Shown piece by piece: positions 1 to 64,000 of a stretch of 64,000 nt of DNA. The position numbers and the translations under genes are program-made. Position 1 is the first letter of the stretch; every line of letters starts with the position of its first letter. The stretch lies in contig JBBELK010000982.1 of the NCBI GenBank assembly GCA_037783545.1, positions 62,001-126,000 on the forward strand, in the 5' to 3' direction. The DNA comes from Henricia sp. BOLD:AAB3569. Its lineage: Eukaryota; Echinodermata; Asteroidea; Spinulosida; Echinasteridae. The notes beneath the pieces are model-generated. The model saw only the letters and a list, made by a program, of their open reading frames with translations. It did no database searches and had not been told where the DNA came from.

Positions 1-690
1 CCGACGAACTTCAAATTTTGCATGCCCTAAACTCTCTATATTGCGCACTTGTCATAAAAAATTGACAGACTTTCGCCGGGAAATGGCAGAGAAATTTCAA
101 AGTTTAGAAAAAACTGGGTTGAGGCTTCCTGACTGCTCTCGCGCAAACCGTGGCTGTCTGTACACACCTCTTTGGGGTACTCCTGAGTTGTGCGCATGCT
201 CAGTCATTCGGACTGTCGTTAACGCACCGCAGTTTGGCTCGGCAATTTGGTCAAAGTGTGGTCCAAACGTCGGCAAATTTGGAGGTCGAAAAATGTTCCG
301 ACGAACATCAAATTTTGCATGCCCTAAACTCTCTATATTGCGCACTTGTCATAACAAATTGACAGACTTTCGCCGGGAAATGGCAGAGAAATTTCAAAGT
401 TTAGAAAAAACTGGGTTGAGGCTTCCTGACTGCTCTCGCGCAAACCGTGGCTGTCTGTACACACCTCTTTGGGGTACTCCTGAGTTGTGCGCATGCTCAG
501 TCATTCGGACTGTCGTTAACGCACCGCAGTTTGGCTCGGCAATTTGGTCAAAGTGTGGTCCAAACGTCGGCAAATTTGGAGGTCGAAAAATGTTCCGACG
601 AACTTCAAATTGTGCATGCCCTAAACTCTCTATATTGCGCACTTGTCATAACAAATTGACAGACTTTCGCCGGGAAATGGCAGAGAAATT

Positions 691-2128
691 TCAAAGTTTA
701 GAAAAAACTGGGTTGAGGCTTCCTGACTGCTCTCGCGCAAACCGTGGCTGTCTGTACACACCTCTTTGGGGTACTCCTGAGTTGTGCGCATGCTCAGTCA
801 TTCGGACTGTCGTTAACGCACCGCAGTTTGGCTCGGCAATTTGGTCAAAGTGTGGTCCAAACGTCGGCAAATTCGGAGGTCGAAAAATGTTCCGACGAAC
901 TTCAAATTTTGCATGCCCTAAACTCTCTATATTGCGCACTTGTCATAAAAAATTGACAGACTTTCGCCGGGAAATGGCAGAGAAATTTCAAAGTTTAGAA
1001 AAAACTGGGTTGAGGCTTCCTGACTGCTCTCGCGCAAACCGTGGCTGTCTGTACACACCTCTTTGGGGTACTCCTGAGTTGTGCGCATGCTCAGTCATTC
1101 GGACTGTCGTTATCGCACCGCAGTTTGGCTCGGCAATTTGGTCAAAGTGTGGTCCAAACGTCGGCAAATTTGGAGGTCGAAAAATGTTCCGACGAACTTC
1201 AAATTTTGCATGCCCTAAACTCTCTATATTGCGCACTTGTCATAACAAATTGACAGACTTTCGCCGGGAAATGGCAGAGAAATTTCAAAGTTTAGAAAAA
1301 ACTGGGTTGAGGCTTCCTGACTGCTCTCGCGCAAACCGTGGCTGTCTGTACACACCTGTTTGGGGTACTCCTGAGTTGTGCGCATGCTCAGTCATTCGGA
1401 CTGTCGTTAACGCACCGCAGTTTGGCTCGGCAATTTGGTCAAAGTGTGGTCGAAACGTCGGCAAATTTGGAGGTCGAAAAATGTTCCGACGAACTTCAAA
1501 TTTTGCATGCCCTAAACTCTCTATATTGCGCACTTGTCATAAAAAATTGACAGACTTTCGCCGGGAAATGGCAGAGAAATTTCAAAGTTTAGAAAAAACT
1601 GGGTTGAGGCTTCCTGACTGCTCTCGCGCAAACCGTGGCTGTCTGTACACACCTATTTGGGGTACTCCTGAGTTGTGCGCATGCTCAGTCATTCGGACTG
1701 TCGTTAACGCACCGCAGTTTGGCTCGGCAATTTGGTCAAAGTGTGGTCCAAACGTCGGCAAATTTGGAGGTCGAAAAATGTTCCGACGAACTTCAAATGT
1801 TGCATGCCCTAAACTCTCTATATTGCGCACTTGTCATAAAAAATTGACAGACTTTCGCCGGGAAATGGCAGAGAAATTTCAAAGTTTAGAAAAAAACTGG
1901 GTTGAGGCTTCCTGACTGCCCTCGCGCAAACCGTGGCTGTCTGTACACACCTCTTTGGGGTACTCCTGAGTTGTGCGCATGCTCAGTCATTCGGACTGTC
2001 GTTAACGCACCGCAGTTTGGCTCGGCAATTTGGTCAAAGTGTGGTCCAAACGTCGGCAAATTTGGAGGTCGAAAAATGTTCCGACGAACTTCAAATTTTG
2101 CATGCCCTAAACTCTCTATATTGCGCAC
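691..2128 (+). repeat. A-type variant string, copy 1 (repeated about 10.7 kb away)
   Basis: Successive monomers carry attcggagg (about 871), cgttatcgc (about 1,108), gtcgaaacg (about 1,449), cctatttgg (about 1,652) and then the extra-A plus ctgccctcg monomer (about 1,887-1,921). The same ordered string recurs at 11,390-13,100 with one extra monomer interposed. Order-preserved sharing of rare variants indicates segmental duplication within the array rather than independent mutation. Confidence 0.75.
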
Positions 2129-3925
2129 TTGTCATAAAAAATTGACAGACTTTCGCCGGGAAATGGCAGAGAAATTTCAAAGTTTAGAAAAAACTGGGTT
2201 GAGGCTTCCTGACTGCTCTCGCGCAAACCGTGGCTGTCTGTACACACCTCTTTGGGGTACTCCTGAGTTGTGCGCATGCTCAGTCATTCGGACTGTCGTT
2301 AACGCACCGCAGTTTGGCTCGGCGATTTGGTCAAAGTGTGGTTCAAACGTCGGCAAATTTGGAGGTCGAAAAATGTTCCGACGAACTTCAAATTTTGCAT
2401 GCCCTAAACTCTCTATATTGCGCACTTGTCATAAAAAATTGACAGACTTTCGCCGGGAAATGGCAGAGAAATTTCAAAGTTTAGAAAAAAACTGGGTTGA
2501 GGCTTCCTGACTGCCCTCGCGCAAACCGTGGCTGTCTGTACACACCTCTTAGGGGTACTCCTGAGTTGTGCGCATGCTCAGTCATTCGGACTGTCGTTAA
2601 CGCACCGCAGTTTGGCTCGGCAATTTGGTCAAAGTGTGGTCCAAACGTCGGCAAATTTGGAGGTCGAAAAATGTTCCGACGAACTTCATATTTTGCATGC
2701 CCTAAACTCTCTATATTGCGCACTTGTCATAACAAATTGACAGACTTTCGCCGGGAAATGGCAGAGAAATTTCAAAGTTTAGAAAAAACTGGGTTGAGGC
2801 TTCCTGACTGCTCTCGCGCAAACCGTGGCTGTCTGTACACACCTCTTTGGGGTACTCCTGAGTTGTGCGCATGCTCAGTCATTCGGACTGTCGTTAACGC
2901 ACCGCAGTTTGGCTCGGCAATTTGGTCAAAGTGTGGTCCAAACGTCGGCAAATTTGGAGGTCGAAAAATGTTCCGACGAACTTTAAATTTTGCATGCCCT
3001 AAACTCTCTATATTGCGCACTTGTCATAAAAAATTGACAGACTTTCGCCGGGAAATGGCAGAGAAATTTCAAAGTTTAGAAAAAACTGGGTTGAGGCTTC
3101 CTGACTGCTCTCGCGCAAACCGTGGCTGTCTGTACACACCTCTTTGGGGTACTCCTGAGTTGTGCGCATGCTCAGTCATTCGGACTGTCGTTAACGCACC
3201 GCAGTTTGGCTCGGCAATTTGGTCAAAGTGTGGTCGAAACGTCGGCAAATTTGGAGGTCGAAAAATGTTCCGACGAACTTCAAATTTTGCATGCCCTAAA
3301 CTCTCTATATTGCGCACTTGTCATAAAAAATTGACAGACTTTCGCCGGGAAATGGCAGAGAAATTTCAAAGTTTAGAAAAAACTGGGTTGAGGCTTCCTG
3401 ACTGCTCTCGCGCAAACCGTGGCTGTCTGTACACACCTCTTTGGGGTACTCCTGAGTTGTGCGCATGCTCAGTCATTCGGACTGTCGTTAACGCACCGCA
3501 GTTTGGCTCGGCGATTTGGTCAAAGTGTGGTTCAAACGTCGGCAAATTTGGAGGTCGAAAAATGTTCCGACGAACTTCAAATTTTGCATGCCCTAAACTC
3601 TCTATATTGCGCACTTGTCATAAAAAATTGACAGACTTTCGCCGGGAAATGGCAGAGAAATTTCAAAGTTTAGAAAAAACTGGGTTGAGGCTTCCTGACT
3701 GCTCTCGCGCAAACCGTGGCTGTCTGTACACACCTCTTTGGGGTACTCCTGAGTTGTGCGCATTCTCAGTCATTCGGACTGTCGTTAACGCACCGCAGTT
3801 TGGCTCGGCAATTTGGTCAAAGTGTGATCCAAACGTCGGCAAATTTGGAGGTCGAAAAATGTTCCGACGAACTTCAAATTTTGCATGCCCTAAACTCTCT
3901 ATATTGCGCACTTGTCATAAAAAAA

Positions 3926-5709
3926 TTGACAGACTTTCGCCGGGAAATGGCAGAGAAATTTCAAAGTTTAGAAAAAACTGGGTTGAGGCTTCCTGACTGC
4001 TCTCGCGCAAACCGTGGCTGTCTGTACACACCTCTTTGGGGTACTCCTGAGTTGTGCGCATTCTCAGTCATTCGGACTGTCGTTAACGCACCGCAGTTTG
4101 GCTCGGCAATTTGGTCAAAGTGTGATCCAAACGTCGGCAAATTTGGAGGTCGAAAAATGTTCCGACGAACTTCAAATTTTGCATGCCCTAAACTCTCTAT
4201 ATTGCGCACTTGTCATAAAAAATTGACAGACTTTCGCCGGGAAATGGCAGAGAAATTTCAAAGTTTAGAAATAACTGGGTTGAGGCTTCCTGACTGCTCT
4301 CGCGCAAACCGTGGCTGTCTGTACACACCTCTTTGGGGTACTACTGAGTTGTGCGCATGCTCAGTCATTCGGACTGTCGTTAACGCACCGCAGTTTGGCT
4401 CGGCAATTTGGTCAAAGTGTGGTCCAAACGTCGGCAAATTTGGAGGTCGAAAAATGTTCCGACGAACTTCAAATTTTGCATGCCCTAAACTCTCTATATT
4501 GCGCACTTGTCATAAAAAATTGACAGACTTTCGCCGGGAAATGGCAGAGAAATTTCAAAGTTTAGAAAAAACTGGGTTGAGGCTTCCTGACTGCTCTCGC
4601 GCAAACCGTGGCTGTCTGTACACACCTCTTTGGGGTACTCCTGAGTTGTGCGCATGCTCAGTCATTCGGACTGTCGTTAACGCACCGCAGTTTGGCTCGG
4701 CAATTTGGTCAAAGTGTGGTCCAAACGTCGGCAAATTTGGAGGTCGAAAAATGTTCCGACGAACTTCAAATTTTGCATGCCCTAAACTCTCTATATTGCG
4801 CACTTGTCATAAAAAAATTGACAGACTTTCGCCGGGAAATGGCAGAGAAATTTCAAAGTTTAGAAAAAACTGGGTTGAGGCTTCCTGACTGCTCTCGCGC
4901 AAACCGTGGCTGTCTGTACACACCTCTTTGGGGTACTCCTGAGTTGTGCGCATTCTCAGTCATTCGGACTGTCGTTAACGCACCGCAGTTTGGCTCGGCA
5001 ATTTGGTCAAAGTGTGATCCAAACGTCGGCAAATTTGGAGGTCGAAAAATGTTCCGACGAACTTCAAATTTTGCATGCCCTAAACTCTCTATATTGCGCA
5101 CTTGTCATAAAAAATTGACAGACTTTCGCCGGGAAATGGCAGAGAAATTTCAAAGTTTAGAAATAACTGGGTTGAGGCTTCCTGACTGCTCTCGCGCAAA
5201 CCGTGGCTGTCTGTACACACCTCTTTGGGGTACTACTGAGTTGTGCGCATGCTCAGTCATTCGGACTGTCGTTAACGCACCGCAGTTTGGCTCGGCAATT
5301 TGGTCAAAGTGTGGTCCAAACGTCGGCAAATTTGGAGGTCGAAAAATGTTCCGACGAACTTCAAATTTTGCATGCCCTAAACTCTCTATATTGCGCACTT
5401 GTCATAAAAAATTGACAGACTTTCGCCGGGAAATGGCAGAGAAATTTCAAAGTTTAGAAAAAACTGGGTTGAGGCTTCCTGACTGCTCTCGCGCAAACCG
5501 TGGCTGTCTGTACACACCTCTTTGGGGTACTCCTGAGTTGTGCGCATGCTCAGTCATTCGGACTGTCGTTAACGCACCGCAGTTTGGCTCGGCAATTTGG
5601 TCAAAGTGTGGTCCAAACGTCGGCAAATTTGGAGGTCGAAAAATGTTCCGACGAACTTCAAATTTTGCATGCCCTAAACTCTCTATATTGCGCACTTGTC
5701 ATAAAAAAA
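3926..5709 (+). repeat. 892-bp three-monomer HOR, two tandem copies
   Basis: Copy 1 is 3,926-4,817 and copy 2 is 4,818-5,709, each 892 bp (3 x 297 + 1). Each holds, in order, a monomer with gcattctcag plus gtgatccaaa, a monomer with gaaataactggg plus ggtactactg, and an unmarked monomer ending in an A-run one base longer. I found no difference between the copies by eye. Another gcattctcag/gtgatcc monomer directly precedes copy 1, consistent with unequal exchange at this unit. Confidence 0.9.
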
Positions 5710-8679
5710 TTGACAGACTTTCGCCGGGAAATGGCAGAGAAATTTCAAAGTTTAGAAAAAACTGGGTTGAGGCTTCCTGACTGCTCTCGCGCAAACCGAG
5801 GCTGTCTGTACACACCTCTTTGGGGTACTCCTGAGTTGTGCGCATGCTCAGTCATTCGGACTGTCGTTAACGCACCGCAGTTTGGCTCGGCAATTTGGTC
5901 AAAGTGTGGTCCAAACGTCGGCAAATTTGGAGGTCGAAAAATGTTCCGACGAACTTCAAATTTTGCATGCCCTAAACTCTCTATATTGCGCACTTGTCAT
6001 ACAAAATTGACAGACTTTCGCCGGGAAATGGCAGAGAAATTTCAAAGTTTAGAAAAAACTGGGTTGAGGCTTCCTGACTGCTCTCGCGCAAACCGTGGCT
6101 GTCTGTACACACCTCTTTGGGGTACTCCTGAGTTGTGCGCATGCTCAGTCATTCGGACTGTCGTTAACGCACCGCAGTTTGGCTCGGCAATTTGGTCAAA
6201 GTGTGGTCCAAACGTCGGCAAATTTGGAGGTCGAAAAATGTTCCGACGAACTTCAAATTTTGCATGCCCTAAACTCTCTATATTGCGCACTTGTCATAAA
6301 AAATTGACAGACTTTCGCCGGGAAATGGCAGAGAAATTTCAAAGTTTAGAAAAAACTGGGTTGAGGCTTCCTGACTGCTCTCGCGCAAACCGTGGCTGTC
6401 TGTACACACCTCTTTGGGGTACTCCTGAGTTGTGCGCATGCTCAGTCATTCGGACTGTCGTTAACGCACCGCAGTTTGGCTCGGCAATTTGGTCAAAGTG
6501 TGGTCCAAACGTCGGCAAATTTGGAGGTCGAAAAATGTTCCGACGAACTTCAAATTTTGCATGCCCTAAACTCTCTATATTGCGCACTTGTCATAAAAAA
6601 TTGACAGACTTTCGCCGGGAAATGGCAGAGAAATTTCAAAGTTTAGAAAAAACTGGGTTGAGGCTTCCTGACTGCTCTCGCGCAAACCGTGGCTGTCTGT
6701 ACACACCTCTTTGGGGTACTCCTGAGTTGTGCGCATGCTCAGTCATTCGGACTGTCGTTAACGCACCGCAGTTTGGCTCGGCAATTTGGTCAAAGTGTGG
6801 TCCAAACGTCGGCAAATTTGGAGGTCGAAAAATGTTCCGACGAACTTCAAATTTTGCATGACCTAAACTCTCTATATTGCGCACTTGTCATAACAAATTG
6901 ACAGACTTTCGCCGGGAAATGGCAGAGAAATTTCAAAGTTTAGAAAAAACTGGGTTGAGGCTTCCTGACTGCTCTCGCGCAAACCGTGGCTGTCTGTACA
7001 CACCTCTTTGGGGTACTCCTGAGTTGTGCGCATGCTCAGTCATTCGGACTGTCGTTAACGCACCGCAGTTTGGCTCGGCGATTTGGTCAAAGTGTGGTTC
7101 AAACGTCGGCAAATTTGGAGGTCGAAAAATGTTCCGACGAACTTCAAATTTTGCATGCCCTAAACTCTCTATATTGCGCACTTGTCATAAAAAATTGACA
7201 GACTTTCGCCGGGAAATGGCAGAGAAATTTCAAAGTTTAGAAAAAACTGGGTTGAGGCTTCCTGACTGCTCTCGCGCAAACCGTGGCTGTCTGTACACAC
7301 CTCTTTGGGGTACTCCTGAGTTGTGCGCATGCTCAGTCATTCGGACTGTCGTTAACGCACCGCAGTTTGGCTCGGCAATTTGGTCAAAGTGTGGTCCAAA
7401 CGTCGGCAAATTTGGAGGTCGAAAAATGTTCCGACGAACTTCAAATTTTGCATGCCCTAAACTCTCTATATTGCGCACTTGTCATAAAAAATTGACAGAC
7501 TTTCGCCGGGAAATGGCAGAGAAATTTCAAAGTTTAGAAAAAACTGGGTTGAGGCTTCCTGACTGCTCTCGCGCAAACCGTGGCTGTCTGTACACACCTC
7601 TTTGGGGTACTCCTGAGTTGTGCGCATGCTCAGTCATTCGGACTGTCGTTAACGCACCGCAGTTTGGCTCGGCAATTTGGTCAAAGTGTGGTCCAAACGT
7701 CGGCAAATTTGGAGGTCGAAAAATGTTCCGACGAACTTCAAATTTTGCATGCCCTAAACTCTCTATATTGCGCACTTGTCATAAAAAATTGACAGACTTT
7801 CGCCGGGAAATGGCAGAGAAATTTCAAAGTTTAGAAAAAACTGGGTTGAGGCTTCCTGACTGCTCTCGCGCAAACCGTGGCTGTCTGTACACACCTCTTT
7901 GGGGTACTCCTGAGTTGTGCGCATGCTCAGTCATTCGGACTGTCGTTAACGCACCGCAGTTTGGCTCGGCAATTTGGTCAAAGTGTGGTCCAAACGTCGG
8001 CAAATTTGGAGGTCGAAAAATGTTCCGACGAACTTCAAATTTTGCATGCCCTAAACTCTCTATATTGCGCACTTGTCATAAAAAATTGACAGACTTTCGC
8101 CGGGAAATGGCAGAGAAATTTCAAAGTTTAGAAAAAACTGGGTTGAGGCTTCCTGACTGCTCTCGCGCAAACCGTGGCTGTCTGTACACACCTCTTTGGG
8201 GTACTCCTGAGTTGTGCGCATGCTCAGTCATTCGGACTGTCGTTAACGCACCGCAGTTTGGCTCGGCAATTTGGTCAAAGTGTGGTCCAAACGTCGGCAA
8301 ATTTGGAGGTCGAAAAATGTTCCGACGAACTTCAAATTTTGCATGCCCTAAACTCTCTATATTGCGCACTTGTCATAAAAAATTGACAGACTTTCGCCGG
8401 GAAATGGCAGAGAAATTTCAAAGTTTAGAAAAAACTGGGTTGAGGCTTCCTGACTGCTCTCGCGCAAACCGTGGCTGTCTGTACACACCTCTTTGGGGTA
8501 CTCCTGAGTTGTGCGCATGCTCAGTCATTCGGACTGTCGTTAACGCACCGCAGTTTGGCTCGGCAATTTGGTCAAAGTGTGGTCCAAACGTCGGCAAATT
8601 TGGAGGTCGAAAAATGTTCCGACGAACTTCAAATTTTGCATGACCTAAACTCTCTATATTGCGCACTTGTCATAACAAA
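5710..8679 (+). repeat. Highly homogenised monomer run with a 1,782-bp six-monomer period
   Basis: Ten monomers, most of which look identical to the reference. Two carry gcatgacct (about 6,857 and 8,639), exactly 1,782 bp (6 x 297) apart, each followed by a taacaaattg junction. The six-mer 6,898-8,679 opens with a ggcgatttgg/gttcaaacg monomer followed by four unmarked monomers. The low variation implies recent local amplification or conversion. Confidence 0.75.
7195..7491 (+). repeat. Reference (consensus-like) 297-bp monomer
   Basis: One of four consecutive unmarked monomers (7,195-8,382), chosen as reference, with phase 1 set at the ttgacagac landmark. Hand count gives 68 C and 71 G in 297 bp (46.8% GC) and 17 CpG, an observed/expected ratio near 1.05. 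Visible parts are: a GAAATTTC palindrome and A-run early; a CGTTAACG palindrome in the middle; two GCATGC palindromes; a tcggcaatttgg motif and a near copy of it 31 bp later; and an A/T-tract-rich last third. One plus-strand frame lacks any stop over all 99 codons. I do not recognise the family. Confidence 0.9.
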
Positions 8680-11389
8680 TTGACAGACTTTCGCCGTGAA
8701 ATGGCAGAGAAATTTCAAAGTTTAGAAAAAACTGGGTTGAGGCTTCCTGACTGCTCTCGCGCAAACCGTGGCTGTCTCTACACACCTCTTTGGGGTACTC
8801 CTGAGTTGTGCGCATGCTCAGTCATTCGGACTGTCGTTAACGCACCGCAGTTTGGCTCGGCAATTTGGTCAAAGTGTGGTCCAAACGTCGGCAAATTTGG
8901 AGGTCGAAAAATGTTCCGACGAACTTCAAATTTTGCATGCCCTAAACTCTCTATATTGCGCACTTGTCATAAAAAATTGACAGACTTTCGCCGGGAAATG
9001 GCAGAGAAATTTCAAAGTTTAGAAAAAACTGGGTTGAGGCTTCCTGACTGCTCTCGCGCAAACCGTGGCTGTCTGTACACACCTCTTTGGGGTACTCCTG
9101 AGTTGTGCGCATGCTCAGTCATTCGGACTGTCGTTATCGCACCGCAGTTTGGCTCGGCAATTTGGTCAAAGTGTGGTCCAAACGTCGGCAAATTTGGAGG
9201 TCGAAAAATGTTCCGACGAACATCAAATTTTGCATGCCCTAAACTCTCTATATTGCGCACTTGTCATAACAAATTGACAGACTTTCGCCGGGAAATGGCA
9301 GAGAAATTTCAAAGTTTAGAAAAAACTGGGTTGAGGCTTCCTGACTGCTCTCGCGCAAACCGTGGCTGTCTGTACACACCTCTTTGGGGTACTCCTGAGT
9401 TGTGCGCATGCTCAGTCATTCGGACTGTCGTTAACGCACCGCAGTTTGGCTCGGCAATTTGGTCAAAGTGTGGTCCAAACGTCGGCAAATTTGGAGGTCG
9501 AAAAATGTTCCGACGAACTTCAAATTTTGCATGCCCTAAACTCTCTATATTGCGCACTTGTCATACAAAATTGACAGACTTTCGCCGGGAAATGGCAGAG
9601 AAATTTCAAAGTTTAGAAAAAACTGGGTTGAGGCTTCCTGACTGCTCTCGCGCAAACCGTGGCTGTCTGTACACACCTCTTTGGGGTACTCCTGAGTTGT
9701 GCGCATGCTCAGTCATTCGGACTGTCGTTATCGCACCGCAGTTTGGCTCGGCAATTTGGTCAAAGTGTGGTCCAAACGTCGGCAAATTTGGAGGTCGAAA
9801 AATGTTCCGACGAACTTCAAATTTTGCATGCCCTAAACTCTCTATATTGCGCACTTGTCATAACAAATTGACAGACTTTCGCCGGGAAATGGCAGAGAAA
9901 TTTCAAAGTTTAGAAAAAACTGGGTTGAGGCTTCCTGACTGCTCTCGCGCAAACCGTGGCTGTCTGTACACACCTCTTTGGGGTACTCCTGAGTTGTGCG
10001 CATGCTCAGTCATTCGGACTGTCGTTAACGCACCGCAGTTTGGCTCGGCAATTTGGTCAAAGTGTGGTCGAAACGTCGGAAAATTTGGAGGTCGAAAAAT
10101 CTTCCGACGAACTTCAAATTTTGCATGCCCTAAACTCTCTATATTGCGCACTTGTCATAAAAAATTGACAGACTTTCGCCGGGAAATGGCAGAGAAATTT
10201 CAAAGTTTAGAAAAAAACTGGGTTGAGGCTTCCTGACTGCCCTCGCGCAAACCGTGGCTGTCTGTACACACCTCTTTGGGGTACTCCTGAGTTGTGCGCA
10301 TGCTCAGTCATTCGGACTGTCGTTAACGCACCGCAGTTTGGCTCGGCAATTTGGTCAAAGTGTGGTCCAAACGTCGGCAAATCTGGAGGTCGAAAAATGT
10401 TCCGACGAACTTCAAATTTTGCATGCCCTAAACTCTCTATATTGCGCACTTGTCATAACAAATTGACAGACTTTCGCCGGGAAATGGCAGAGAAATTTCA
10501 AAGTTTAGAAAAAAACTGGGTTGAGGCTTCCTGACTGCTCTCGCGCAAACCGTGGCTGTCTGTACACACCTCTTTGGGGTACTCCTGAGTTGTGCGCATG
10601 CTCAGTCATTCGGACTGTCGTTAACGCACCGCAGTTTGGCTCGGCGATTTGGTCAAAGTGTGGTTCAAACGTCGGCAAATTTGGAGGTCGAAAAATGTTC
10701 CGACGAACTTCAAATTTTGCATGCCCTAAACTCTCTATATTGCGCACTTGTCATAAAAAATTGACAGACTTTCGCCGGGAAATGGCAGAGAAATGTCAAA
10801 GTTTAGAAAAAACTGAGTTGAGGCTTCCTGACTGCTCTCGCGCAAACCGTGGCTGTCTGTACACACCTCTTTGGGGTACTCCTGAGTTGTGCGCATGCTC
10901 AGTCATTCGGACTGTCGTTAACGCACCGCAGTTTGGCTCGGCAATTTGGTCAAAGTGTGGTCCAAACGTCGGCAAATTTGGAGGTCGAAAAATGTTCCGA
11001 CGAACTTCAAATTTTGCATGCCCTAAACTCTCTATATTGCGCACTTGTCATACAAAATTGACAGACTTTCGCCGGGAAATGGCAGAGAAATTTCAAAGTT
11101 TAGAAAAAACTGGGTTGAGGCTTCCTGACTGCTCTCGCGCAAACCGTGGCTGTCTGTACACACCTCTTTGGGGTACTCCTGAGTTGTGCGCATGCTCAGT
11201 CATTCGGACTGTCGTTAACGCACCGCAGTTTGGCTCGGCAATTTGGTCAAAGTGTGGTCCAAACGTCGGCAAATTTGGAGGTCGAAAAATGTTCCGACGA
11301 ACTTCAAATTTTGCATGCCCTAAACTCTCTATATTGCGCACTTGTCATAACAAATTGACAGACTTTCGCCGGGAAATGGCAGAGAAATT

Positions 11390-21457: not shown

Positions 21458-21793
21458 ATGACAGACTTTCGCCGGGAAATGGCAGAGAAATTTCAAAGTT
21501 TAGAAAAAACTGGGTTGAGGCTTCCTGACTGCTCTCGCGCAAACCGTGGCTGTCTGTACACACCTCTTTGGGGTACTCCTGAGTTGTGCGCATGCTCAGT
21601 CATTCGGACTGTCGTTAACGCACCGCAGTTTGGCTCGGCAATTTGGTCAAAGTGTGGTCCAAACGTCGGCAAATTTGGAGGTCGAAAAATGTTCCGACGA
21701 ACTTCAAATTTTGCATGCCCTAAACTCTCTATATTGCGCACTTGTCATAAAAAATTGACAGACTTTCGCCGGGAAATGGCAGAGAAATTTTAA

Positions 21794-40602: not shown

Positions 40603-40899
40603 TTGACAGACTTTCGCCGGGAAATGGCAGAGAAATTTCAAAGTTTAGAAAAAAATGGGTTGAGACTTCCTGACTGCTCTCGCGCAAACCGTGGCTGTCT
40701 GTACACACCTCTTTGGGGTACTCCTGAGTTGTGCGCATGCTCAGTCATTCGGACTGTCGTTAACGCACCGCAGTTTGGCTCGGCAATTTGGTCAAAGTGT
40801 GGTCCAAACGTCGGCAAATTTGGAGGTCGAAAAATGTTCCGACGAACTTCAAATTTTGCATGCCCTAAACTCTCTATATTGCACACTTGTCATAAAAAA

Positions 40900-43871: not shown

Positions 43872-44207
43872 TTGACAGACTTTCGCCGGGAAATGGCAGA
43901 GAAATTTCAAAGTTTAGAAAAAACTGGGTTGAGGCTTCCTGACTGCTCTCGCGCAAACCGTGGCTGTCTGTACACACCTCTTTGGGGTACTCCTGAGTTG
44001 TGCGCATGCTCAGTCATTCGGACTGTCGTTAACGCACCGCAGTTTGGCTCGGCAATTTGGTCAAAGTGTGGTCCAAACGTCGGCAAATTTGGAGGTCGAA
44101 AAATGTTCCGACGAACTTCAAATTTTGCATGCCCTAAACTCTCTATATTGCGCACTTGTCATAAAAAATTGACAGACTTTCGCCGGGAAATGGCAGAGAA
44201 ATTTTAA

Positions 44208-50444: not shown

Positions 50445-50703
50445 AGTTTAGACAAAACTGGGTTGAGGCTTCCTGACTGCTCTCGCGCAAACCGTGGCTG
50501 TCTGTACACACCTCTTTGGGGTACTCCTGAGTTGTGCGCATGCTCAGTCATTCGGACTGTCGTTAACGCACCGCAGTTTGGCTCGGCAATTTGGTCAAAG
50601 TGTGGTCCAAACGTCGGCAAATTTGGAGGTCGAAAAATGTTCCGACGAACTTCAAATTTTGCATGCCCTAAACTCTCTATATTGCGCACTTGTCATAAAA
50701 AAA

Positions 50704-53079: not shown

Positions 53080-56000
53080 TTGACAGACTTTCGCCGGGAA
53101 ATGGCAGAGAAATTTCCAAGTTTAGAAAAAAATGGGTTGAGGCTTCCTGACTGCTCTCGCGCAAACCGTGGCTGTCTGTACACACCTCTTTGGGGTACTC
53201 CTGAGTTGTGCGCATGCTCAGTCATTCGGACAGTCGTTAACGCACCGCAGTTTGGCTCGGCAATTTGGTCAAAGTGTGGTCCAAACGTCGGCAAATTTGG
53301 AGGTCGAACAATGTTCCGACGAACTTCAAATTTTGCATGCCCTAAACTCTCTATATTGCGCACTTGTCATAAAAAATTGACATACTTTCGCCGGGAAATG
53401 GCAGAGAAATTTCAAAGTTTAGAAAAAACTGGGTTGAGGCTTCCTGACTGCTCTCGCGCAAACCGTGGCTGTCTTTACACACCTCTTTGGGGTACTCCTG
53501 AGTTGTGCGCATGCTCAGTCATTCGGACTGTCGTTAACGCACCGCAGTTTGGCTCGGCAATTTGGTCAAAGTGTGGTCCAAACGTCGGCAAATTTGGAGG
53601 TCGAAAAATGTTCCGACGAACTTCAAATTTTGCATGCCCTAAACTCTCTATATTGCGCACTTGTCATACAAAATTGACAGACTTTCGCCGGGAAATGGCA
53701 GAGAAATTTCAAAGTTTAGAAAAAAATGGGTTGAGGCTTCCTGACTGCTCTCGCGCAAACCGTGGCTGTCTGTACACACCTCTTTGGGGTACTCCTGAGT
53801 TGTGCGCATGCTCAGTCATTCGGACAGTCGTTAACGCACCGCAGTTTGGCTCGGCAATTTGGTCAAAGTGTGGTCCAAACGTCGGCAAATTTGGAGGTCG
53901 AAAAATGTTCCGACGAACTTCAAATTTTGCATGCCCTAAACTCTCTATATTGCGCACTTGTCATAAAAAATTGACAGACTTTCGCCGGGAAATGGCAGAG
54001 AAATTTCAAAGTTTAGAAAAAACTGGGTTGAGGCTTCCTGACTGCTCTCGCGCAAACCGTGGCTGTCTGTACACACCTCTTTGGGGTACTCCTGAGTTGT
54101 GCGCATGCTCAGTCATTCGGACTGTCGTTAACGCACCGCAGTTTGGCTCGGCAATTTGGTCAAAGTGTGGTCCAAACGTCGGCAAATTTGGAGGTCGAAA
54201 AATGTTCCGACGAACTTCAAATTTTGCATGCCCTAAACTCTCTATATTGCGCACTTGTCATAAAAAATTGACAGACTTTCGCCGGGAAATGGCAGAGAAA
54301 TTTTAAAGTTTAGAAAAAACTGGGTTGAGGCTTCCTGACTGCTCTCGCGCAAACCGTGGCTGTCTGTACACACCTCTTTGGGGTACTCCTGAGTTGTGCG
54401 CATGCTCAGTCATTCGGACTGTCGTTAACGCACCGCAGTTTGGCTCGGCAATTTGGTCAAAGTGTGGTCCAAACGTCGGCAAATTTGGAGGTCGAAAAAT
54501 GTTCCGACGAACTTCAAATTTTGCATGCCCTAAACTCTCTATATTGCGCACTTGTCATAAAAAATTGACATACTTTCGCCGGGAAATGGCAGAGAAATTT
54601 CAAAGTTTAGAAAAAACTGGGTTGAGGCTTCCTGACTGCTCTCGCGCAAACCGTGGCTGTCTTTACACACCTCTTTGGGGTACTCCTGAGTTGTGCGCAT
54701 GCTCAGTCATTCGGACTGTCGTTAACGCACCGCAGTTTGGCTGGGCAATTTGGTCAAAGTGTGGTCCAAACGTCGGCAAATTTGGAGGTCGAAAAATGTT
54801 CCGACGAACTTCAAATTTTGCATGCCCTAAACTCTCTATATTGCGCACTTGTCATACAAAATTGACAGACTTTCGCCGGGAAATGGCAGAGAAATTTCAA
54901 AGTTTAGAAAAAAATGGGTTGAGGCTTCCTGACTGCTCTCGCGCAAACCGTGGCTGTCTTTACACACCTCTTTGGGGTACTCCTGAGTTGTGCGCATGCT
55001 CAGTCATTCGGACTGTCGTTAACGCACCGCAGTTTGGCTCGGCAATTTGGTCAAAGTGTGGTCCAAACGTCGGCAAATTTGGAGGTCGAAAAATGTTCCG
55101 ACGAACTTCAAATTTTGCATGCCCTAAACTCTCTATATTGCGCACTTGTCATACAAAATTGACAGACTTTCGCCGGGAAATGGCAGAGAAATTTCAAAGT
55201 TTAGAAAAAAATGGGTTGAGGCTTCCTGACTGCTCTCGCGCAAACCGTGGCTGTCTGTACACACCTCTTTGGGGTACTCCTGAGTTGTGCGCATGCTCAG
55301 TCATTCGGACAGTCGTTAACGCACCGCAGTTTGGCTCGGCAATTTGGTCAAAGTGTGGTCCAAACGTCGGCAAATTTGGAGGTCGAAAAATGTTCCGACG
55401 AACTTCAAATTTTGCATGCCCTAAACTCTCTATATTGCGCACTTGTCATAAAAAATTGACAGACTTTCGCCGGGAAATGGCAGAGAAATTTCAAAGTTTA
55501 GAAAAAACTGGGTTGAGGCTTCCTGACTGCTCTCGCGCAAACCGTGGCTGTCTGTACACACCTCTTTGGGGTACTCCTGAGTTGTGCGCATGCTCAGTCA
55601 TTCGGACTGTCGTTAACGCACCGCAGTTTGGCTCGGCAATTTGGTCAAAGTGTGGTCCAAACGTCGGCAAATTTGGAGGTCGAAAAATGTTCCGACGAAC
55701 TTCAAATTTTGCATGCCCTAAACTCTCTATATTGCGCACTTGTCATAAAAAATTGACAGACTTTCGCCGGGAAATGGCAGAGAAATTTTAAAGTTTAGAA
55801 AAAACTGGGTTGAGGCTTCCTGACTGCTCTCGCGCAAACCGTGGCTGTCTGTACACACCTCTTTGGGGTACTCCTGAGTTGTGCGCATGCTCAGTCATTC
55901 GGACTGTCGTTAACGCACCGCAGTTTGGCTCGGCAATTTGGTCAAAGTGTGGTCCAAACGTCGGCAAATTTGGAGGTCGAAAAATGTTCCGACGAACTTC

Positions 56001-59000
56001 AAATTTTGCATGCCCTAAACTCTCTATATTGCGCACTTGTCATAAAAAATTGACATACTTTCGCCGGGAAATGGCAGAGAAATTTCAAAGTTTAGAAAAA
56101 ACTGGGTTGAGGCTTCCTGACTGCTCTCGCGCAAACCGTGGCTGTCTTTACACACCTCTTTGGGGTACTCCTGAGTTGTGCGCATGCTCAGTCATTCGGA
56201 CTGTCGTTAACGCACCGCAGTTTGGCTCGGCAATTTGGTCAAAGTGTGGTCCAAACGTCGGCAAATTTGGAGGTCGAAAAATGTTCCGACGAACTTCAAA
56301 TTTTGCATGCCCTAAACTCTCTATATTGCGCACTTGTCATAAAAAATTGACAGACTTTCGCCGGGAAATGGCAGAGAAATTTTAAAGTTTAGAAAAAACT
56401 GGGTTGAGGCTTCCTGACTGCTCTCGCGCAAACCGTGGCTGTCTGTACACACCTCTTTGGGGTACTCCTGAGTTGTGCGCATGCTCAGTCATTCGGACTG
56501 TCGTTAACGCACCGCAGTTTGGCTCGGCAATTTGGTCAAAGTGTGGTCCAAACGTCGGCAAATTTGGAGGTCGAAAAATGTTCCGACGAACTTCAAATTT
56601 TGCATGCCCTAAACTCTCTATATTGCGCACTTGTCATACAAAATTGACAGACTTTCGCCGGGAAATGGCAGAGAAATTTCAAAGTTTAGAAAAAAATGGG
56701 TTGAGGCTTCCTGACTGCTCTCGCGCAAACCGTGGCTGTCTGTACACACCTCTTTGGGGTACTCCTGAGTTGTGCGCATGCTCAGTCATTCGGACAGTCG
56801 TTAACGCACCGCAGTTTGGCTCGGCAATTTGGTCAAAGTGTGGTCCAAACGTCGGCAAATTTGGAGGTCGAAAAATGTTCCGACGAACTTCAAATTTTGC
56901 ATGCCCTAAACTCTCTATATTGCGCACTTGTCATAAAAAATTGACAGACTTTCGCCGGGAAATGGCAGAGAAATTTCAAAGTTTAGAAAAAACTGGGTTG
57001 AGGCTTCCTGACTGCTCTCGCGCAAACCGTGGCTGTCTGTACACACCTCTTTGGGGTACTCCTGAGTTGTGCGCATGCTCAGTCATTCGGACTGTCGTTA
57101 ACGCACCGCAGTTTGGCTCGGCAATTTGGTCAAAGTGTGGTCCAAACGTCGGCAAATTTGGAGGTCGAAAAATGTTCCGACGAACTTCAAATTTTGCATG
57201 CCCTAAACTCTCTATATTGCGCACTTGTCATAAAAAATTGACAGACTTTCGCCGGGAAATGGCAGAGAAATTTTAAAGTTTAGAAAAAACTGGGTTGAGG
57301 CTTCCTGACTGCTCTCGCGCAAACCGTGGCTGTCTGTACACACCTCTTTGGGGTACTCCTGAGTTGTGCGCATGCTCAGTCATTCGGACTGTCGTTAACG
57401 CACCGCAGTTTGGCTCGGCAATTTGGTCAAAGTGTGGTCCAAACGTCGGCAAATTTGGAGGTCGAAAAATGTTCCGACGAACTTCAAATTTTGCATGCCC
57501 TAAACTCTCTATATTGCGCACTTGTCATAAAAAATTGACATACTTTCGCCGGGAAATGGCAGAGAAATTTCAAAGTTTAGAAAAAACTGGGTTGAGGCTT
57601 CCTGACTGCTCTCGCGCAAACCGTGGCTGTCTTTACACACCTCTTTGGGGTACTCCTGAGTTGTGCGCATGCTCAGTCATTCGGACTGTCGTTAACGCAC
57701 CGCAGTTTGGCTCGGCAATTTGGTCAAAGTGTGGTCCAAACGTCGGCAAATTTGGAGGTCGAAAAATGTTCCGACGAACTTCAAATTTTGCATGCCCTAA
57801 ACTCTCTATATTGCGCACTTGTCATACAAAATTGACAGACTTTCGCCGGGAAATGGCAGAGAAATTTCAAAGTTTAGAAAAAAATGGGTTGAGGCTTCCT
57901 GACTGCTCTCGCGCAAACCGTGGCTGTCTGTACACACCTCTTTGGGGTACTCCTGAGTTGTGCGCATGCTCAGTCATTCGGACAGTCGTTAACGCACCGC
58001 AGTTTGGCTCGGCAATTTGGTCAAAGTGTGGTCCAAACGTCGGCAAATTTGGAGGTCGAACAATGTTCCGACGAACTTCAAATTTTGCATGCCCTAAACT
58101 CTCTATATTGCGCACTTGTCATAAAAAATTGACATACTTTCGCCGGGAAATGGCAGAGAAATTTCAAAGTTTAGAAAAAACTGGGTTGAGGCTTCCTGAC
58201 TGCTCTCGCGCAAACCGTGGCTGTCTTTACACACCTCTTTGGGGTACTCCTGAGTTGTGCGCATGCTCAGTCATTCGGACTGTCGTTAACGCACCGCAGT
58301 TTGGCTCGGCAATTTGGTCAAAGTGTGGTCCAAACGTCGGCAAATTTGGAGGTCGAAAAATGTTCCGACGAACTTCAAATTTTGCATGCCCTAAACTCTC
58401 TATATTGCGCACTTGTCATAAAAAAATTGACAGACTTTCGCCGGGAAATGGCAGAGAAATTTCAAAGTTTAGAAAAAACTGGGTTGAGGCTTCCTGACTG
58501 CTCTCGCGCAAGCCGTGGCTGTCTGTACACACCTCTTTGGGGTACTCCTGAGTTGTGCGCATGCTCAGTCATTCGGACTGTCGTTAACGCACCGCAGTTT
58601 GGCTGGGCAATTTGGTCAAAGTGTGGTCCAAACGTCGGCAAATTTGGAGGTCGAAAAATGTTCCGACGAACTTCAAATTTTGCATGCCCTAAACTCTCTA
58701 TATTGCGCACTTGTCATACAAAATTGACAGACTTTCGCCGGGAAATGGCAGAGAAATTTCAAAGTTTAGAAAAAAATGGGTTGAGGCTTCCTGACTGCTC
58801 TCGCGCAAACCGTGGCTGTCTTTACACACCTCTTTGGGGTACTCCTGAGTTGTGCGCATGCTCAGTCATTCGGACTGTCGTTAACGCACCGCAGTTTGGC
58901 TCGGCAATTTGGTCAAAGTGTGGTCCAAACGTCGGCAAATTTGGAGGTCGAAAAATGTTCCGACGAACTTCAAATTTTGCATGCCCTAAACTCTCTATAT

Positions 59001-62000
59001 TGCGCACTTGTCATACAAAATTGACAGACTTTCGCCGGGAAATGGCAGAGAAATTTCAAAGTTTAGAAAAAAATGGGTTGAGGCTTCCTGACTGCTCTCG
59101 CGCAAACCGTGGCTGTCTGTACACACCTCTTTGGGGTACTCCTGAGTTGTGCGCATGCTCAGTCATTCGGACAGTCGTTAACGCACCGCAGTTTGGCTCG
59201 GCAATTTGGTCAAAGTGTGGTCCAAACGTCGGCAAATTTGGAGGTCGAAAAATGTTCCGACGAACTTCAAATTTTGCATGCCCTAAACTCTCTATATTGC
59301 GCACTTGTCATAAAAAATTGACAGACTTTCGCCGGGAAATGGCAGAGAAATTTCAAAGTTTAGAAAAAACTGGGTTGAGGCTTCCTGACTGCTCTCGCGC
59401 AAACCGTGGCTGTCTGTACACACCTCTTTGGGGTACTCCTGAGTTGTGCGCATGCTCAGTCATTCGGACTGTCGTTAACGCACCGCAGTTTGGCTCGGCA
59501 ATTTGGTCAAAGTGTGGTCCAAACGTCGGCAAATTTGGAGGTCGAAAAATGTTCCGACGAACTTCAAATTTTGCATGCCCTAAACTCTCTATATTGCGCA
59601 CTTGTCATAACAAATTGACAGACTTTCGCCGGGAAATGGCAGAGAAATTTTAAAGTTTAGAAAAAACTGGGTTGAGGCTTCCTGACTGCTCTCGCGCAAA
59701 CCGTGGCTGTCTGTACACACCTCTTTGGGGTACTCCTGAGTTGTGCGCATGCTCAGTCATTCGGACTGTCGTTAACGCACCGCAGTTTGGCTGGGCAATT
59801 TGGTCAAAGTGTGGTCCAAACGTCGGCAAATTTGGAGGTCGAAAAATGTTCCGACGAACTTCAAATTTTGCATGCCCTAAACTCTCTATATTGCGCACTT
59901 GTCATACAAAATTGACAGACTTTCGCCGGGAAATGGCAGAGAAATTTCAAAGTTTAGAAAAAAATGGGTTGAGGCTTCCTGACTGCTCTCGCGCAAACCG
60001 TGGCTGTCTTTACACACCTCTTTGGGGTACTCCTGAGTTGTGCGCATGCTCAGTCATTCGGACTGTCGTTAACGCACCGCAGTTTGGCTCGGCAATTTGG
60101 TCAAAGTGTGGTCCAAACGTCGGCAAATTTGGAGGTCGAAAAATGTTCCGACGAACTTCAAATTTTGCATGCCCTAAACTCTCTATATTGCGCACTTGTC
60201 ATACAAAATTGACAGACTTTCGCCGGGAAATGGCAGAGAAATTTCAAAGTTTAGAAAAAAATGGGTTGAGGCTTCCTGACTGCTCTCGCGCAAACCGTGG
60301 CTGTCTGTACACACCTCTTTGGGGTACTCCTGAGTTGTGCGCATGCTCAGTCATTCGGACAGTCGTTAACGCACCGCAGTTTGGCTCGGCAATTTGGTCA
60401 AAGTGTGGTCCAAACGTCGGCAAATTTGGAGGTCGAAAAATGTTCCGACGAACTTCAAATTTTGCATGCCCTAAACTCTCTATATTGCGCACTTGTCATA
60501 CAAAATTGACAGACTTTCGCCGGGAAATGGCAGAGAAATTTCAAAGTTTAGAAAAAAATGGGTTGAGGCTTCCTGACTGCTCTCGCGCAAACCGTGGCTG
60601 TCTGTACACACCTCTTTGGGGTACTCCTGAGTTGTGCGCATGCTCAGTCATTCGGACAGTCGTTAACGCACCGCAGTTTGGCTCGGCAATTTGGTCAAAG
60701 TGTGGTCCAAACGTCGGCAAATTTGGAGGTCGAAAAATGTTCCGACGAACTTCAAATTTTGCATGCCCTAAACTCTCTATATTGCGCACTTGTCATAAAA
60801 AATTGACAGACTTTCGCCGGGAAATGGCAGAGAAATTTCAAAGTTTAGAAAAAACTGGGTTGAGGCTTCCTGACTGCTCTCGCGCAAACCGTGGCTGTCT
60901 GTACACACCTCTTTGGGGTACTCCTGAGTTGTGCGCATGCTCAGTCATTCGGACTGTCGTTAACGCACCGCAGTTTGGCTCGGCAATTTGGTCAAAGTGT
61001 GGTCCAAACGTCGGCAAATTTGGAGGTCGAAAAATGTTCCGACGAACTTCAAATTTTGCATGCCCTAAACTCTCTATATTGCGCACTTGTCATAAAAAAT
61101 TGACAGACTTTCGCCGGGAAATGGCAGAGAAATTTTAAAGTTTAGAAAAAACTGGGTTGAGGCTTCCTGACTGCTCTCGCGCAAACCGTGGCTGTCTGTA
61201 CACACCTCTTTGGGGTACTCCTGAGTTGTGCGCATGCTCAGTCATTCGGACTGTCGTTAACGCACCGCAGTTTGGCTCGGCAATTTGGTCAAAGTGTGGT
61301 CCAAACGTCGGCAAATTTGGAGGTCGAAAAATGTTCCGACGAACTTCAAATTTTGCATGCCCTAAACTCTCTATATTGCGCACTTGTCATAAAAAATTGA
61401 CATACTTTCGCCGGGAAATGGCAGAGAAATTTCAAAGTTTAGAAAAAACTGGGTTGAGGCTTCCTGACTGCTCTCGCGCAAACCGTGGCTGTCTTTACAC
61501 ACCTCTTTGGGGTACTCCTGAGTTGTGCGCATGCTCAGTCATTCGGACTGTCGTTAACGCACCGCAGTTTGGCTCGGCAATTTGGTCAAAGTGTGGTCCA
61601 AACGTCGGCAAATTTGGAGGTCGAAAAATGTTCCGACGAACTTCAAATTTTGCATGCCCTAAACTCTCTATATTGCGCACTTGTCATACAAAATTGACAG
61701 ACTTTCGCCGGGAAATGGCAGAGAAATTTCAAAGTTTAGAAAAAAATGGGTTGAGGCTTTCTGACTGCTCTCGCGCAAACCGTGGCTGTCTTTACACACC
61801 TCTTTGGGGTACTCCTGAGTTGTGCGCATGCTCAGTCATTCGGACTGTCGTTAACGCACCGCAGTTTGGCTGGGCAATTTGGTCAAAGTGTGGTCCAAAC
61901 GTCGGCAAATTTGGAGGTCGAAAAATGTTCCGACGAACTTCAAATTTTGCATGCCCTAAACTCTCTATATTGCGCACTTGTCATACAAAATTGACAGACT

Positions 62001-64000
62001 TTCGCCGGGAAATGGCAGAGAAATTTCAAAGTTTAGAAAAAAATGGGTTGAGGCTTTCTGACTGCTCTCGCGCAAACCGTGGCTGTCTTTACACACCTCT
62101 TTGGGGTACTCCTGAGTTGTGCGCATGCTCAGTCATTCGGACTGTCGTTAACGCACCGCAGTTTGGCTCGGCAATTTGGTCAAAGTGTGGTCCAAACGTC
62201 GGCAAATTTGGAGGTCGAAAAATGTTCCGACGAACTTCAAATTTTGCATGCCCTAAACTCTCTATATTGCGCACTTGTCATACAAAATTGACAGACTTTC
62301 GCCGGGAAATGGCAGAGAAATTTCAAAGTTTAGAAAAAAATGGGTTGAGGCTTCCTGACTGCTCTCGCGCAAACCGTGGCTGTCTGTACACACCTCTTTG
62401 GGGTACTCCTGAGTTGTGCGCATGCTCAGTCATTCGGACAGTCGTTAATGCACCGCAGTTTGGCTCGGCAATTTGGTCAAAGTGTGGTCCAAACGTCGGC
62501 AAATTTGGAGGTCGAAAAATGTTCCGACGAACTTCAAATTTTGCATGCCCTAAACTCTCTATATTGCGCACTTGTCATAAAAAATTGACAGACTTTCGCC
62601 GGGAAATGGCAGAGAAATTTCAAAGTTTAGAAAAAACTGGGTTGAGGCTTCCTGACTGCTCTCGCGCAAACCGTGGCTGTCTGTACACACCTCTTTGGGG
62701 TACTCCTGAGTTGTGCGCATGCTCAGTCATTCGGACTGTCGTTAACGCACCGCAGTTTGGCTCGGCAATTTGGTCAAAGTGTGGTCCAAACGTCGGCAAA
62801 TTTGGAGGTCGAAAAATGTTCCGACGAACTTCAAATTTTGCATGCCCTAAACTCTCTATATTGCGCACTTGTCATAACAAATTGACAGACTTTCGCCGGG
62901 AAATGGCAGAGAAATTTTAAAGTTTAGAAAAAACTGGGTTGAGGCTTCCTGACTGCTCTCGCGCAAACCGTGGCTGTCTGTACACACCTCTTTGGGGTAC
63001 TCCTGAGTTGTGCGCATGCTCAGTCATTCGGACTGTCGTTAACGCACCGCAGTTTGGCTGGGCAATTTGGTCAAAGTGTGGTCCAAACGTCGGCAAATTT
63101 GGAGGTCGAAAAATGTTCCGACGAACTTCAAATTTTGCATGCCCTAAACTCTCTATATTGCGCACTTGTCATACAAAATTGACAGACTTTCGCCGGGAAA
63201 TGGCAGAGAAATTTCAAAGTTTAGAAAAAAATGGGTTGAGGCTTCCTGACTGCTCTCGCGCAAACCGTGGCTGTCTTTACACACCTCTTTGGGGTACTCC
63301 TGAGTTGTGCGCATGCTCAGTCATTCGGACTGTCGTTAACGCACCGCAGTTTGGCTCGGCAATTTGGTCAAAGTGTGGTCCAAACGTCGGCAAATTTGGA
63401 GGTCGAAAAATGTTCCGACGAACTTCAAATTTTGCATGCCCTAAACTCTCTATATTGCGCACTTGTCATACAAAATTGACAGACTTTCGCCGGGAAATGG
63501 CAGAGAAATTTCAAAGTTTAGAAAAAAATGGGTTGAGGCTTCCTGACTGCTCTCGCGCAAACCGTGGCTGTCTGTACACACCTCTTTGGGGTACTCCTGA
63601 GTTGTGCGCATGCTCAGTCATTCGGACAGTCGTTAACGCACCGCAGTTTGGCTCGGCAATTTGGTCAAAGTGTGGTCCAAACGTCGGCAAATTTGGAGGT
63701 CGAAAAATGTTCCGACGAACTTCAAATTTTGCATGCCCTAAACTCTCTATATTGCGCACTTGTCATAAAAAATTGACAGACTTTCGCCGGGAAATGGCAG
63801 AGAAATTTCAAAGTTTAGAAAAAACTGGGTTGAGGCTTCCTGACTGCTCTCGCGCAAACCGTGGCTGTCTGTACACACCTCTTTGGGGTACTCCTGAGTT
63901 GTGCGCATGCTCAGTCATTCGGACTGTCGTTAACGCACCGCAGTTTGGCTCGGCAATTTGGTCAAAGTGTGGTCCAAACGTCGGCAAATTTGGAGGTCGA
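53080..64000 (+). repeat. B-type satellite block 3 (runs off the window)
   Basis: Gaaattttaaag marks end units at 54,306, 55,791, 56,385, 57,276, 59,653, 61,138 and 62,920, giving unit lengths of 5, 2, 3, 8, 5 and 6 monomers after the first. A ggctgggcaa variant occurs five times (54,739, 58,601, 59,789, 61,868 and 63,056), spaced 13, 4, 7 and 4 monomers apart. Ggctttctgac is private to two adjacent monomers near 61,755 and 62,052. The varied unit lengths with few private variants indicate recent and continuing unequal exchange. Confidence 0.85.

What the first reader, a model, noticed from the sequence alone, without database searches (positions are those of the whole stretch)
1..64000. Three-level satellite: 297-bp monomer, 594-bp dimers, and HORs of 2 to 15 monomers
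Shared single-base variants sort monomers into classes that recur in fixed order. Dimers of 594 bp occur in both families with different markers. In B blocks they sit inside longer units bounded by a C-to-T variant (gaaattttaaag). The 18 boundary marks are 6, 5, 13, 10, 4, 24, 5, 6, 6, 15, 13, 5, 2, 3, 8, 5 and 6 monomers apart. This is alpha-satellite-like organisation in an unrelated monomer, with HOR length not yet fixed.
Basis: seen in the sequence. Interest (0 to 1): 0.75.

Follow-up and report, generated by a model that had tools for sequence, protein, structure and literature searches.

The report
Satellite array with irregular higher-order repeats
A long run of nearly identical 297-base repeats, probably from an animal or plant chromosome, in which groups of five or six repeats have been copied as blocks by recombination; a good worked example of a known kind of repeat DNA.

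Summary
The window is a head-to-tail array of about 213 copies of a 297-bp satellite monomer (mean pairwise difference 1.27%), split once by a 725-bp insert. In the three B stretches (113 of 209 monomers tested) monomer order is far from random: a core unit a-b-c-b-d-(plain), a pentamer g-q-c-b-d, and a 5-monomer periodicity. The A stretches show only local duplications, and mark spacings are not HOR lengths. Unit copies are 99.3-100% identical, but monomers inside a unit are already 98.3-98.7% identical: an incipient, irregular HOR in the manner of Arabidopsis CEN178, not alpha-satellite-grade. New here: a gapped colinear duplication of 13-18 kb (40 monomer pairs, 99.69%) and hybrid monomers where whole monomers are missing, so unequal exchange inside monomers changed unit lengths. 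The open 297-bp frame shows no sign of coding. No relative was found in the collections and papers searched. Species, chromosome position and assembly accuracy could not be tested. Ordinary in kind, informative in detail.

The parts
1..31439 (+). 297-bp satellite array, left part (head to tail)
   Evidence: TRF: period 297, 105.8 copies, 98% match
32165..64000 (+). 297-bp satellite array, right part
   Evidence: TRF: period 297, 107.2 copies, 98% match
1..19675 (+). Block A1: no significant monomer offset of 30 tested; local duplications
19676..34065 (+). Block B1: bcbcb|abcbd.abDb.abcbdgqcbdg.fadgqcbdg|fag.fa (contains the insert; | marks a left-out monomer)
34066..40602 (+). Block A2, with one 7-monomer tandem duplication (36145-38224 / 38225-40305)
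40603..50703 (+). Block B2: Dabcbdabcbd.abcbd.aBbdgqcbDcbdg.fa
50704..53079 (+). Block A3 (8 monomers; not tested alone)
53080..64000 (+). Block B3: units with hybrid monomer x, such as abxd.
21755..23536 (+). Core 6-monomer unit a-b-c-b-d-plain
   Evidence: first five monomers 99.53-99.87% to the five other units beginning abcb
40900..42385 (+). Unit abcbd (5 monomers), first of three successive core units
   Evidence: no difference in five monomers from the unit at 42386
42386..44168 (+). Unit abcbd. (6 monomers), second of three
44169..45950 (+). Unit abcbd. (6 monomers), third of three
26507..27991 (+). Pentamer g-q-c-b-d, copy 1
   Evidence: 6-monomer run with 29477, offset 10, 3 differences
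29477..30961 (+). Pentamer g-q-c-b-d, copy 2
30962..32876 (+). Tetramer g-plain-f-a carrying the insert
32877..34065 (+). Twin tetramer without the insert, sharing two private variants with the insert-bearing one
18191..36441 (+). Large gapped duplication, copy 1 (end of A1, B1, part of A2)
   Evidence: monomer-level local alignment; 40 of 56 complete monomers aligned
39117..51891 (+). Large gapped duplication, copy 2 (end of A2, B2, part of A3)
   Evidence: 40 of 43 monomers aligned, 99.69% identity
46248..46544 (+). Hybrid monomer: b-type left, c-type right, where one monomer is missing from abcbd
54862..55158 (+). Hybrid monomer x: c-type left, b-type right, in a unit abxd. instead of abcbd.
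48327..48623 (+). Probable hybrid: c/d-type left, right part with 295C (b or q type); weaker case
31440..32164 (+). 725-bp non-satellite insert in one monomer, GG repeated at its ends
31851..32084 (+). 67-bp minisatellite, 3.5 copies, inside the insert

Best explanation
A non-coding satellite array, most likely of a eukaryotic chromosome, that evolves by unequal (out-of-register) exchange of multi-monomer segments. Point changes label monomers. Tandem duplication of segments of several monomers copies the labels in fixed order, giving irregular, still-young higher-order units (5- and 6-mers, a pentamer, a tetramer) in the B stretches; a larger duplication of 13-18 kb copied an A-to-B stretch and was then gapped by losses and gains. 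Exchange with breakpoints inside monomers, in register at the 297-bp level, removes whole monomers and leaves a hybrid monomer at the joint, which is one reason why unit length varies. Shown: order, periodicity, large colinearity, single-switch mosaic monomers. Inferred: the exchange mechanism (sister-chromatid unequal crossover, gene conversion or break-induced replication cannot be told apart here), the eukaryotic host, and any centromeric role.
For: Order and period in B blocks. Units beginning abcb (6 of the 18 that begin with a) 99.3-100% to each other against 98.3-98.7% between monomers of a unit. Colinear duplication: score 142.2, at most 138.5 in 500 unit-order shuffles and 58.9 in 300 monomer shuffles. 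All 9 of 209 monomers that mix b and c markers switch type once along six sites, in 4 distinct mosaics; column shuffles in B give a mean of 0.24 and a maximum of 0.43 of mixers with at most one switch in 2000. 12 of 15 candidate hybrids have the neighbours predicted by exchange between the parents, null mean 4.8, maximum 9 of 300. A tetramer occurs with and without the insert. Neighbouring monomers are no more alike than average (ratio 1.03), which a duplication simulation reaches with mean segments of 8-16 monomers and not 1-4. Non-coding: 19 synonymous, 54 non-synonymous and 4 stop changes against 18.3, 54.1 and 4.6 expected.
Against: A first, strict form of the hybrid test (exact neighbours, all variants kept) supported 1 of 25 candidates, no better than its null (mean 0.54, maximum 3 of 300); support came only after variants with fewer than four carriers were set aside and one neighbour difference was allowed. 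The 15 candidates are 7 distinct haplotypes, so the counts are not independent. Two of the four mosaics (48327, 60209) need only one recurrent change from another class. The simulation did not match everything: medians of 12.5-29.5 haplotypes against 95 observed, and of 116-307 identical 3-monomer runs against 23, so pure tandem duplication is not the whole story. The margin of the colinearity score over the strictest null is small, its regions were chosen, and B1 also aligns with B2 in other registers (scores 101.1 and 87.9). B3 alone has no significant offset.
Confidence: 0.8

Rival explanations
1. Mature alpha-satellite-like HOR array: a fixed multi-monomer unit, amplified as such and maintained at a centromere.
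For: Three successive core units at 40900-45950, ordered marker classes, hybrid monomers as in human arrays.
Against: Monomers inside a unit are 98.3-98.7% identical instead of about 70%; unit length varies; block A1 without period; no CENP-B box (PMC8122249 passages).
Confidence: 0.07
2. Assembly artefact: near-identical reads of a plain monomeric array were mis-joined, giving false unit order, false hybrids and a false large duplication.
For: Monomers are 98.7% identical on average, a hard case for assemblers; a mis-join out of step by one monomer would itself create a hybrid monomer. No reads were available.
Against: The x-type hybrid occurs at six places, two of them with a further shared change (61694, 61991), and unit copies carry their own private variants; the insert-bearing tetramer and its empty twin differ as expected of real copies.
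Confidence: 0.1
3. A coding tandem repeat: 297 bp is 99 codons and the consensus has one open frame, so it could be a giant repetitive protein.
For: Frame 0 of the consensus is open; ORFs up to 1478 aa.
Against: 20 one-base insertions in 209 monomers, and the a-mark, which makes a stop codon, break the frame; change types match the non-coding expectation; at least one open frame is expected by chance with probability 0.16; no Pfam match at E up to 1.
Confidence: 0.02

Closest known systems
Arabidopsis thaliana CEN178 HORs as annotated by TRASH (PMC10199239, passages)
   Same: HORs taken as pairs of blocks of monomers with few variants between counterparts, found without discrete monomer classes; [quoted passage not shown]
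   Different: Monomer length (178 against 297) and sequence; CEN178 is centromeric. TRASH itself was not run here.
Poplar Palv156 (centromeric) and Palv148 (non-centromeric) arrays (PMC12046899, passages)
   Same: Similar monomers organised into HORs; Palv148 shows that this also occurs outside centromeres, so HORs alone do not prove a centromere.
   Different: Other names, lengths and species; CENH3 was examined there. Sequences were not compared.
Human alpha-satellite HORs, their structural variants and hybrid monomers (PMC8122249, PMC8336445, PMC9549924, passages)
   Same: Unit variants by insertion or deletion of whole monomers, and hybrid monomers in which parts of two monomers are fused with monomer length conserved.
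   Different: Monomers within a unit about 70% identical there, 98.3-98.7% here; CENP-B boxes there, none here.
Insect satellites with dimeric and trimeric HORs, such as Chrysolina carnifex (PMC8122249, passage)
   Same: Monomers and short HORs of one repeat coexist.
   Different: 211-bp monomer; no relation by sequence was tested.

Membership tests
Satellite DNA array | Long head-to-tail array of one non-coding unit | tested here: met
   About 213 copies, + strand, 98% match; change types as expected without coding
Higher-order repeat (block definition, as in TRASH) | Pairs of blocks of at least 3 monomers with few variants between counterparts, beyond shuffles | tested here: met
   Identical runs of 3 or more: B blocks 18, shuffle mean 0.25, maximum 4 of 60; A blocks 5, mean 0.1, maximum 1. 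With one difference allowed: B 66 (maximum 19), A 15 (mean 6.2, maximum 18, so not beyond shuffles). TRASH's default of 5 variants would be uninformative, as the mean difference is 3.77
Alpha-satellite-grade HOR | Monomers within the unit strongly diverged, unit copies 97-100% identical | tested here: not met
   98.3-98.7% within, 99.3-100% between
Alpha-satellite-grade HOR | One unit repeated many times in tandem | tested here: not met
   At most three successive core units (40900-45950); unit length varies. Only 64 kb seen
Alpha satellite / CENP-B-dependent centromere DNA | CENP-B box | tested here: not met
   No match to the core in the consensus; best partial score 7 of 9; 150 of 300 shuffles reach 7 or more
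Centromeric satellite | CENP-A/CENH3 occupancy, position on chromosome | not testable with these tools
   No genome is held for the window; no chromatin data

The most novel reading that the evidence does not exclude
The array is a live centromere caught at the birth of a higher-order repeat: an active recombination process has just begun to favour 5-6-monomer units over single monomers, with the intermediate hybrids, an empty-site/filled-site pair and a 13-18 kb parent duplication still readable in 64 kb.
Probability: 0.2. Interest if true: 0.55.

Novelty: new member of a known kind. Interest (0 to 1): 0.32.

Why it matters
How monomeric satellites turn into higher-order repeats is usually inferred from mature arrays (general knowledge). 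Here monomers differ by only about four bases, so single events (hybrid monomers, whole-unit duplications, an insertion relative to a duplication) can still be read one by one. It is a useful test case for HOR-origin models, but the phenomenon itself is known.

Tried and rejected
Coding repeat: not supported. RNA gene or tRNA: none. CENP-B box: none beyond chance. Strong DNA secondary structure of the monomer: z -1.17, not notable. Relatives: no match of two monomers in phages or plasmids, none of the insert, no exact match of one 30-base satellite piece in viral contigs or genome contigs, none of one 27-base insert piece in viral contigs; the insert was not sought in genome contigs, and E. 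coli genomes was not searched. As described by the tools, these collections hold phages, plasmids, viral contigs and prokaryote genomes, so absence says little about a eukaryote. Papers: '297 bp' with satellite DNA, monomer and tandem gave 2 papers: in one (PMC3351487) the 297 bp refers to a retroelement alignment (passages); the other, on Dracaena organelle genomes, was seen as a listing only. With higher-order terms: none. Six 14-15-base pieces of the monomer gave 4 papers, all through one piece, with titles on interleukins and T cells (listing only). Searches looked for comparable HOR papers; only the papers named in this report were opened. Strict hybrid test: negative; relaxed test positive. 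The A2 family-wise p values are invalid (missing values) and were recomputed. Duplication simulation: matches neighbour similarity only, not haplotype number or run counts.
Full report
The window is one satellite array. TRF gives a 297-bp period from 1 to 31439 and from 32165 to 64000 at 98% match. The 212 TTGACA[GT] landmarks lie on the + strand; the - strand has one TTGACAT match, at 10793. For all order statistics I used the 209 complete monomers cut by landmarks; the double-length piece at 21161 (two monomers) and the insert-bearing piece at 31259 were left out, as was the partial sequence at either end. Mean pairwise difference is 3.77 of 297 (1.27%), with 525 identical pairs, 95 haplotypes, and 75 variable columns, 33 of them singletons. 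Column numbers below are the 0-based alignment columns.

Blocks. B monomers carry the classes a (36T), b (6T, 99T, usually 295C), c (53A, 153A, 231C), d (53A, 153A), g (207G), q (295C), f (53A, 176A, 298C) and plain. Written as classes, B1 is bcbcb|abcbd.abDb.abcbdgqcbdg.fadgqcbdg|fag.fa (the bars, put in from the all-window string, mark left-out monomers), B2 is Dabcbdabcbd.abcbd.aBbdgqcbDcbdg.fa, and B3 is cbd.abxd.abad.abcbqxdraxdd.abxxdraxd.

Tests of order. Against shuffles of monomers within blocks, the class of one monomer predicts the next strongly in B (mutual information z 16.9, lag 2 z 9.8) and less in A (z 5.9; lag 2 p 0.052). Offsets: the pooled B blocks (113 monomers, 30 lags) show 5 (family-wise p 0.0005) and 11 (p 0.0145); A1 (66 monomers, 30 lags) shows none; A2 (22 monomers, 11 lags) shows 7 (p 0.0015), which is one tandem duplication of seven monomers; A3 (8 monomers) was not tested alone. 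Singly, offset 5 holds in B1 (p 0.012) and B2 (p 0.019) but not in B3 (p 0.151); B1 also has offset 10 (p 0.002) and a borderline 2 (p 0.054). Offset 1 is larger than average in B (4.44 against 3.84): neighbours tend to be of different classes. Block borders were fixed before these tests but drawn from the same data, which may flatter the B results somewhat.

Units. Eighteen stretches begin with an a monomer. The six that begin abcb, compared over their first five monomers, are 99.33-100% identical to one another, while monomers within one of them average 98.32-98.72%; the one at 57238 has q instead of d in fifth place and gives the lowest values. Three core units follow each other at 40900-45950. 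The 18 marks are real, but the spacings of 10, 13 and 15 inside B contain the pentamer and tetramer modules, the other 13 spans A3 and the 24 spans A2, so they are not HOR lengths.

A fourth level. A monomer-level local alignment, scoring shared rare variants, has its best path (score 146.8, 56 pairs) from 18191 against 39117 onward to 45060 against 58129. I kept its first 40 pairs, where the two sides do not overlap: 18191-36441 against 39117-51891, 15 pairs identical, 99.69% on average; these are 40 of 56 and 40 of 43 complete monomers, so copy 1 holds many that copy 2 lacks. The whole-window score has a maximum of 74.9 in 60 within-block shuffles. For two regions chosen after that result the score is 142.2; 300 monomer shuffles of the second region reach at most 58.9, and 500 shuffles that keep its local units intact and permute only their order have mean 86.7, standard deviation 16.3 and maximum 138.5. 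So the order of the units themselves seems shared, at a small margin over the strictest null. B1 and B2 also align in two other registers with scores of 101.1 and 87.9, as expected of periodic sequence, so the exact register of the duplication is uncertain.

Hybrid monomers. Nine of 209 monomers carry both b and c markers, and all nine change type once along the six marker sites, in four distinct mosaics. Shuffling each marker column among the 113 B monomers gives on average 0.24, and at most 0.43 in 2000 shuffles, of mixed monomers with at most one change. The monomer at 54862 has the left part of c and the right part of b, with the switch between columns 53 and 99, and its unit reads a-b-x-d-plain where the core reads a-b-c-b-d-plain: one monomer is gone and its neighbours look fused. 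The monomer at 46248 is the opposite fusion, switched in the same interval, again in a unit short by one. The monomer at 48327 has a c/d-type left part and a right part with 295C, as in b or q; read as d fused to q, an inference, it sits where the pentamer has lost two monomers. With rare variants set aside, 12 of 15 candidates have the neighbours expected from exchange between their parents (null mean 4.8, maximum 9 of 300), but these are seven haplotypes, and a stricter first version supported only 1 of 25 (null mean 0.54). By recurrent mutation, the mosaics at 54862 and 46248 would each need at least two changes; those at 48327 and 60209 could arise by one and are weaker.

The insert. 31440-32164 interrupts one monomer, with GG repeated at its two ends. 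The broken monomer and the intact one at 33174 share a change found in none of the other 208 complete monomers, and the two surrounding tetramers share a second private change (32580 and 33768). The simplest order is tetramer duplication, then insertion; insertion first with later loss is not excluded. The first 22 bases copy the satellite, which has the same stretch just upstream; the body holds a 67-bp minisatellite, and near the right end lie a 10-bp hairpin (DNA fold z -3.49), AATAAA at 32145 and five A's. No Pfam, Rfam, phage or plasmid match. It may be a non-autonomous mobile element (a Helitron-like element with an internal minisatellite, or a short poly-A retro-insertion; both recalled from general knowledge); this is undecided.

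Mechanism. A simple simulation of segment duplication and deletion (12 runs for each of five mean segment lengths) gives median neighbour-to-average difference ratios of 0.05, 0.25, 0.56, 0.92 and 1.02 for 1, 2, 4, 8 and 16 monomers; the observed ratio is 1.03. Single-monomer turnover is thus unlikely to dominate. The same simulation gives too few haplotypes (medians 12.5-29.5 against 95), too many identical runs (116-307 against 23) and too many identical pairs (0.117-0.214 against 0.024), so conversion, a larger array or other processes must add to it. Similarity falls weakly with distance (3.43 at offsets 2-5, 3.84 beyond 80).

Not coding. The consensus has one open frame, which produces ORFs up to 1478 aa. 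At least one open frame is expected in such a sequence with probability 0.16, the changes are as expected without selection (19, 54 and 4 against 18.3, 54.1 and 4.6), and 20 one-base insertions break the frame. CpG observed/expected is 1.05, and 3 of 23 C-to-T or G-to-A changes lie at CpG against 5.6 expected, so there is no sign of methylation-driven decay.

Comparison. By the block definition of TRASH (PMC10199239, passages) these are HORs. By the alpha-satellite standard (PMC8122249, passages) they are not. Hybrid monomers and whole-monomer length variants are known in human arrays (PMC8336445 and PMC9549924, passages). HORs in non-centromeric arrays are known too (PMC12046899, passages), so a centromeric role cannot be inferred from the order alone. 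I found no report of this monomer in the searches named in Tried and rejected.

Noticed in passing
31440-32164: 725-bp insert in one monomer with GG repeated at its ends, a 22-base copy of the neighbouring satellite at its left end, a 67-bp minisatellite (3.5 copies), a 10-bp hairpin, AATAAA and five A's at its right end; no relatives found in the collections searched.
   Followed up: partly
30962-34065: Tandem tetramer duplication with and without the insert, sharing two private variants: a filled-site/empty-site pair that helps to order two events.
   Followed up: yes
1-64000, frame of TTGACA: The 297-bp consensus is open in one frame, giving ORFs up to 1478 aa that are not coding by the tests done; gene finders may call them.
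   Followed up: yes
alignment columns 46 and 297 (beside A runs): 18 of the 20 one-base insertions fall at two columns beside A runs, so they may be polymerase slippage or sequencing error.
   Followed up: no
3926-5709: A three-monomer tandem duplication in block A1 (haplotypes 12, 13, 14 twice).
   Followed up: no
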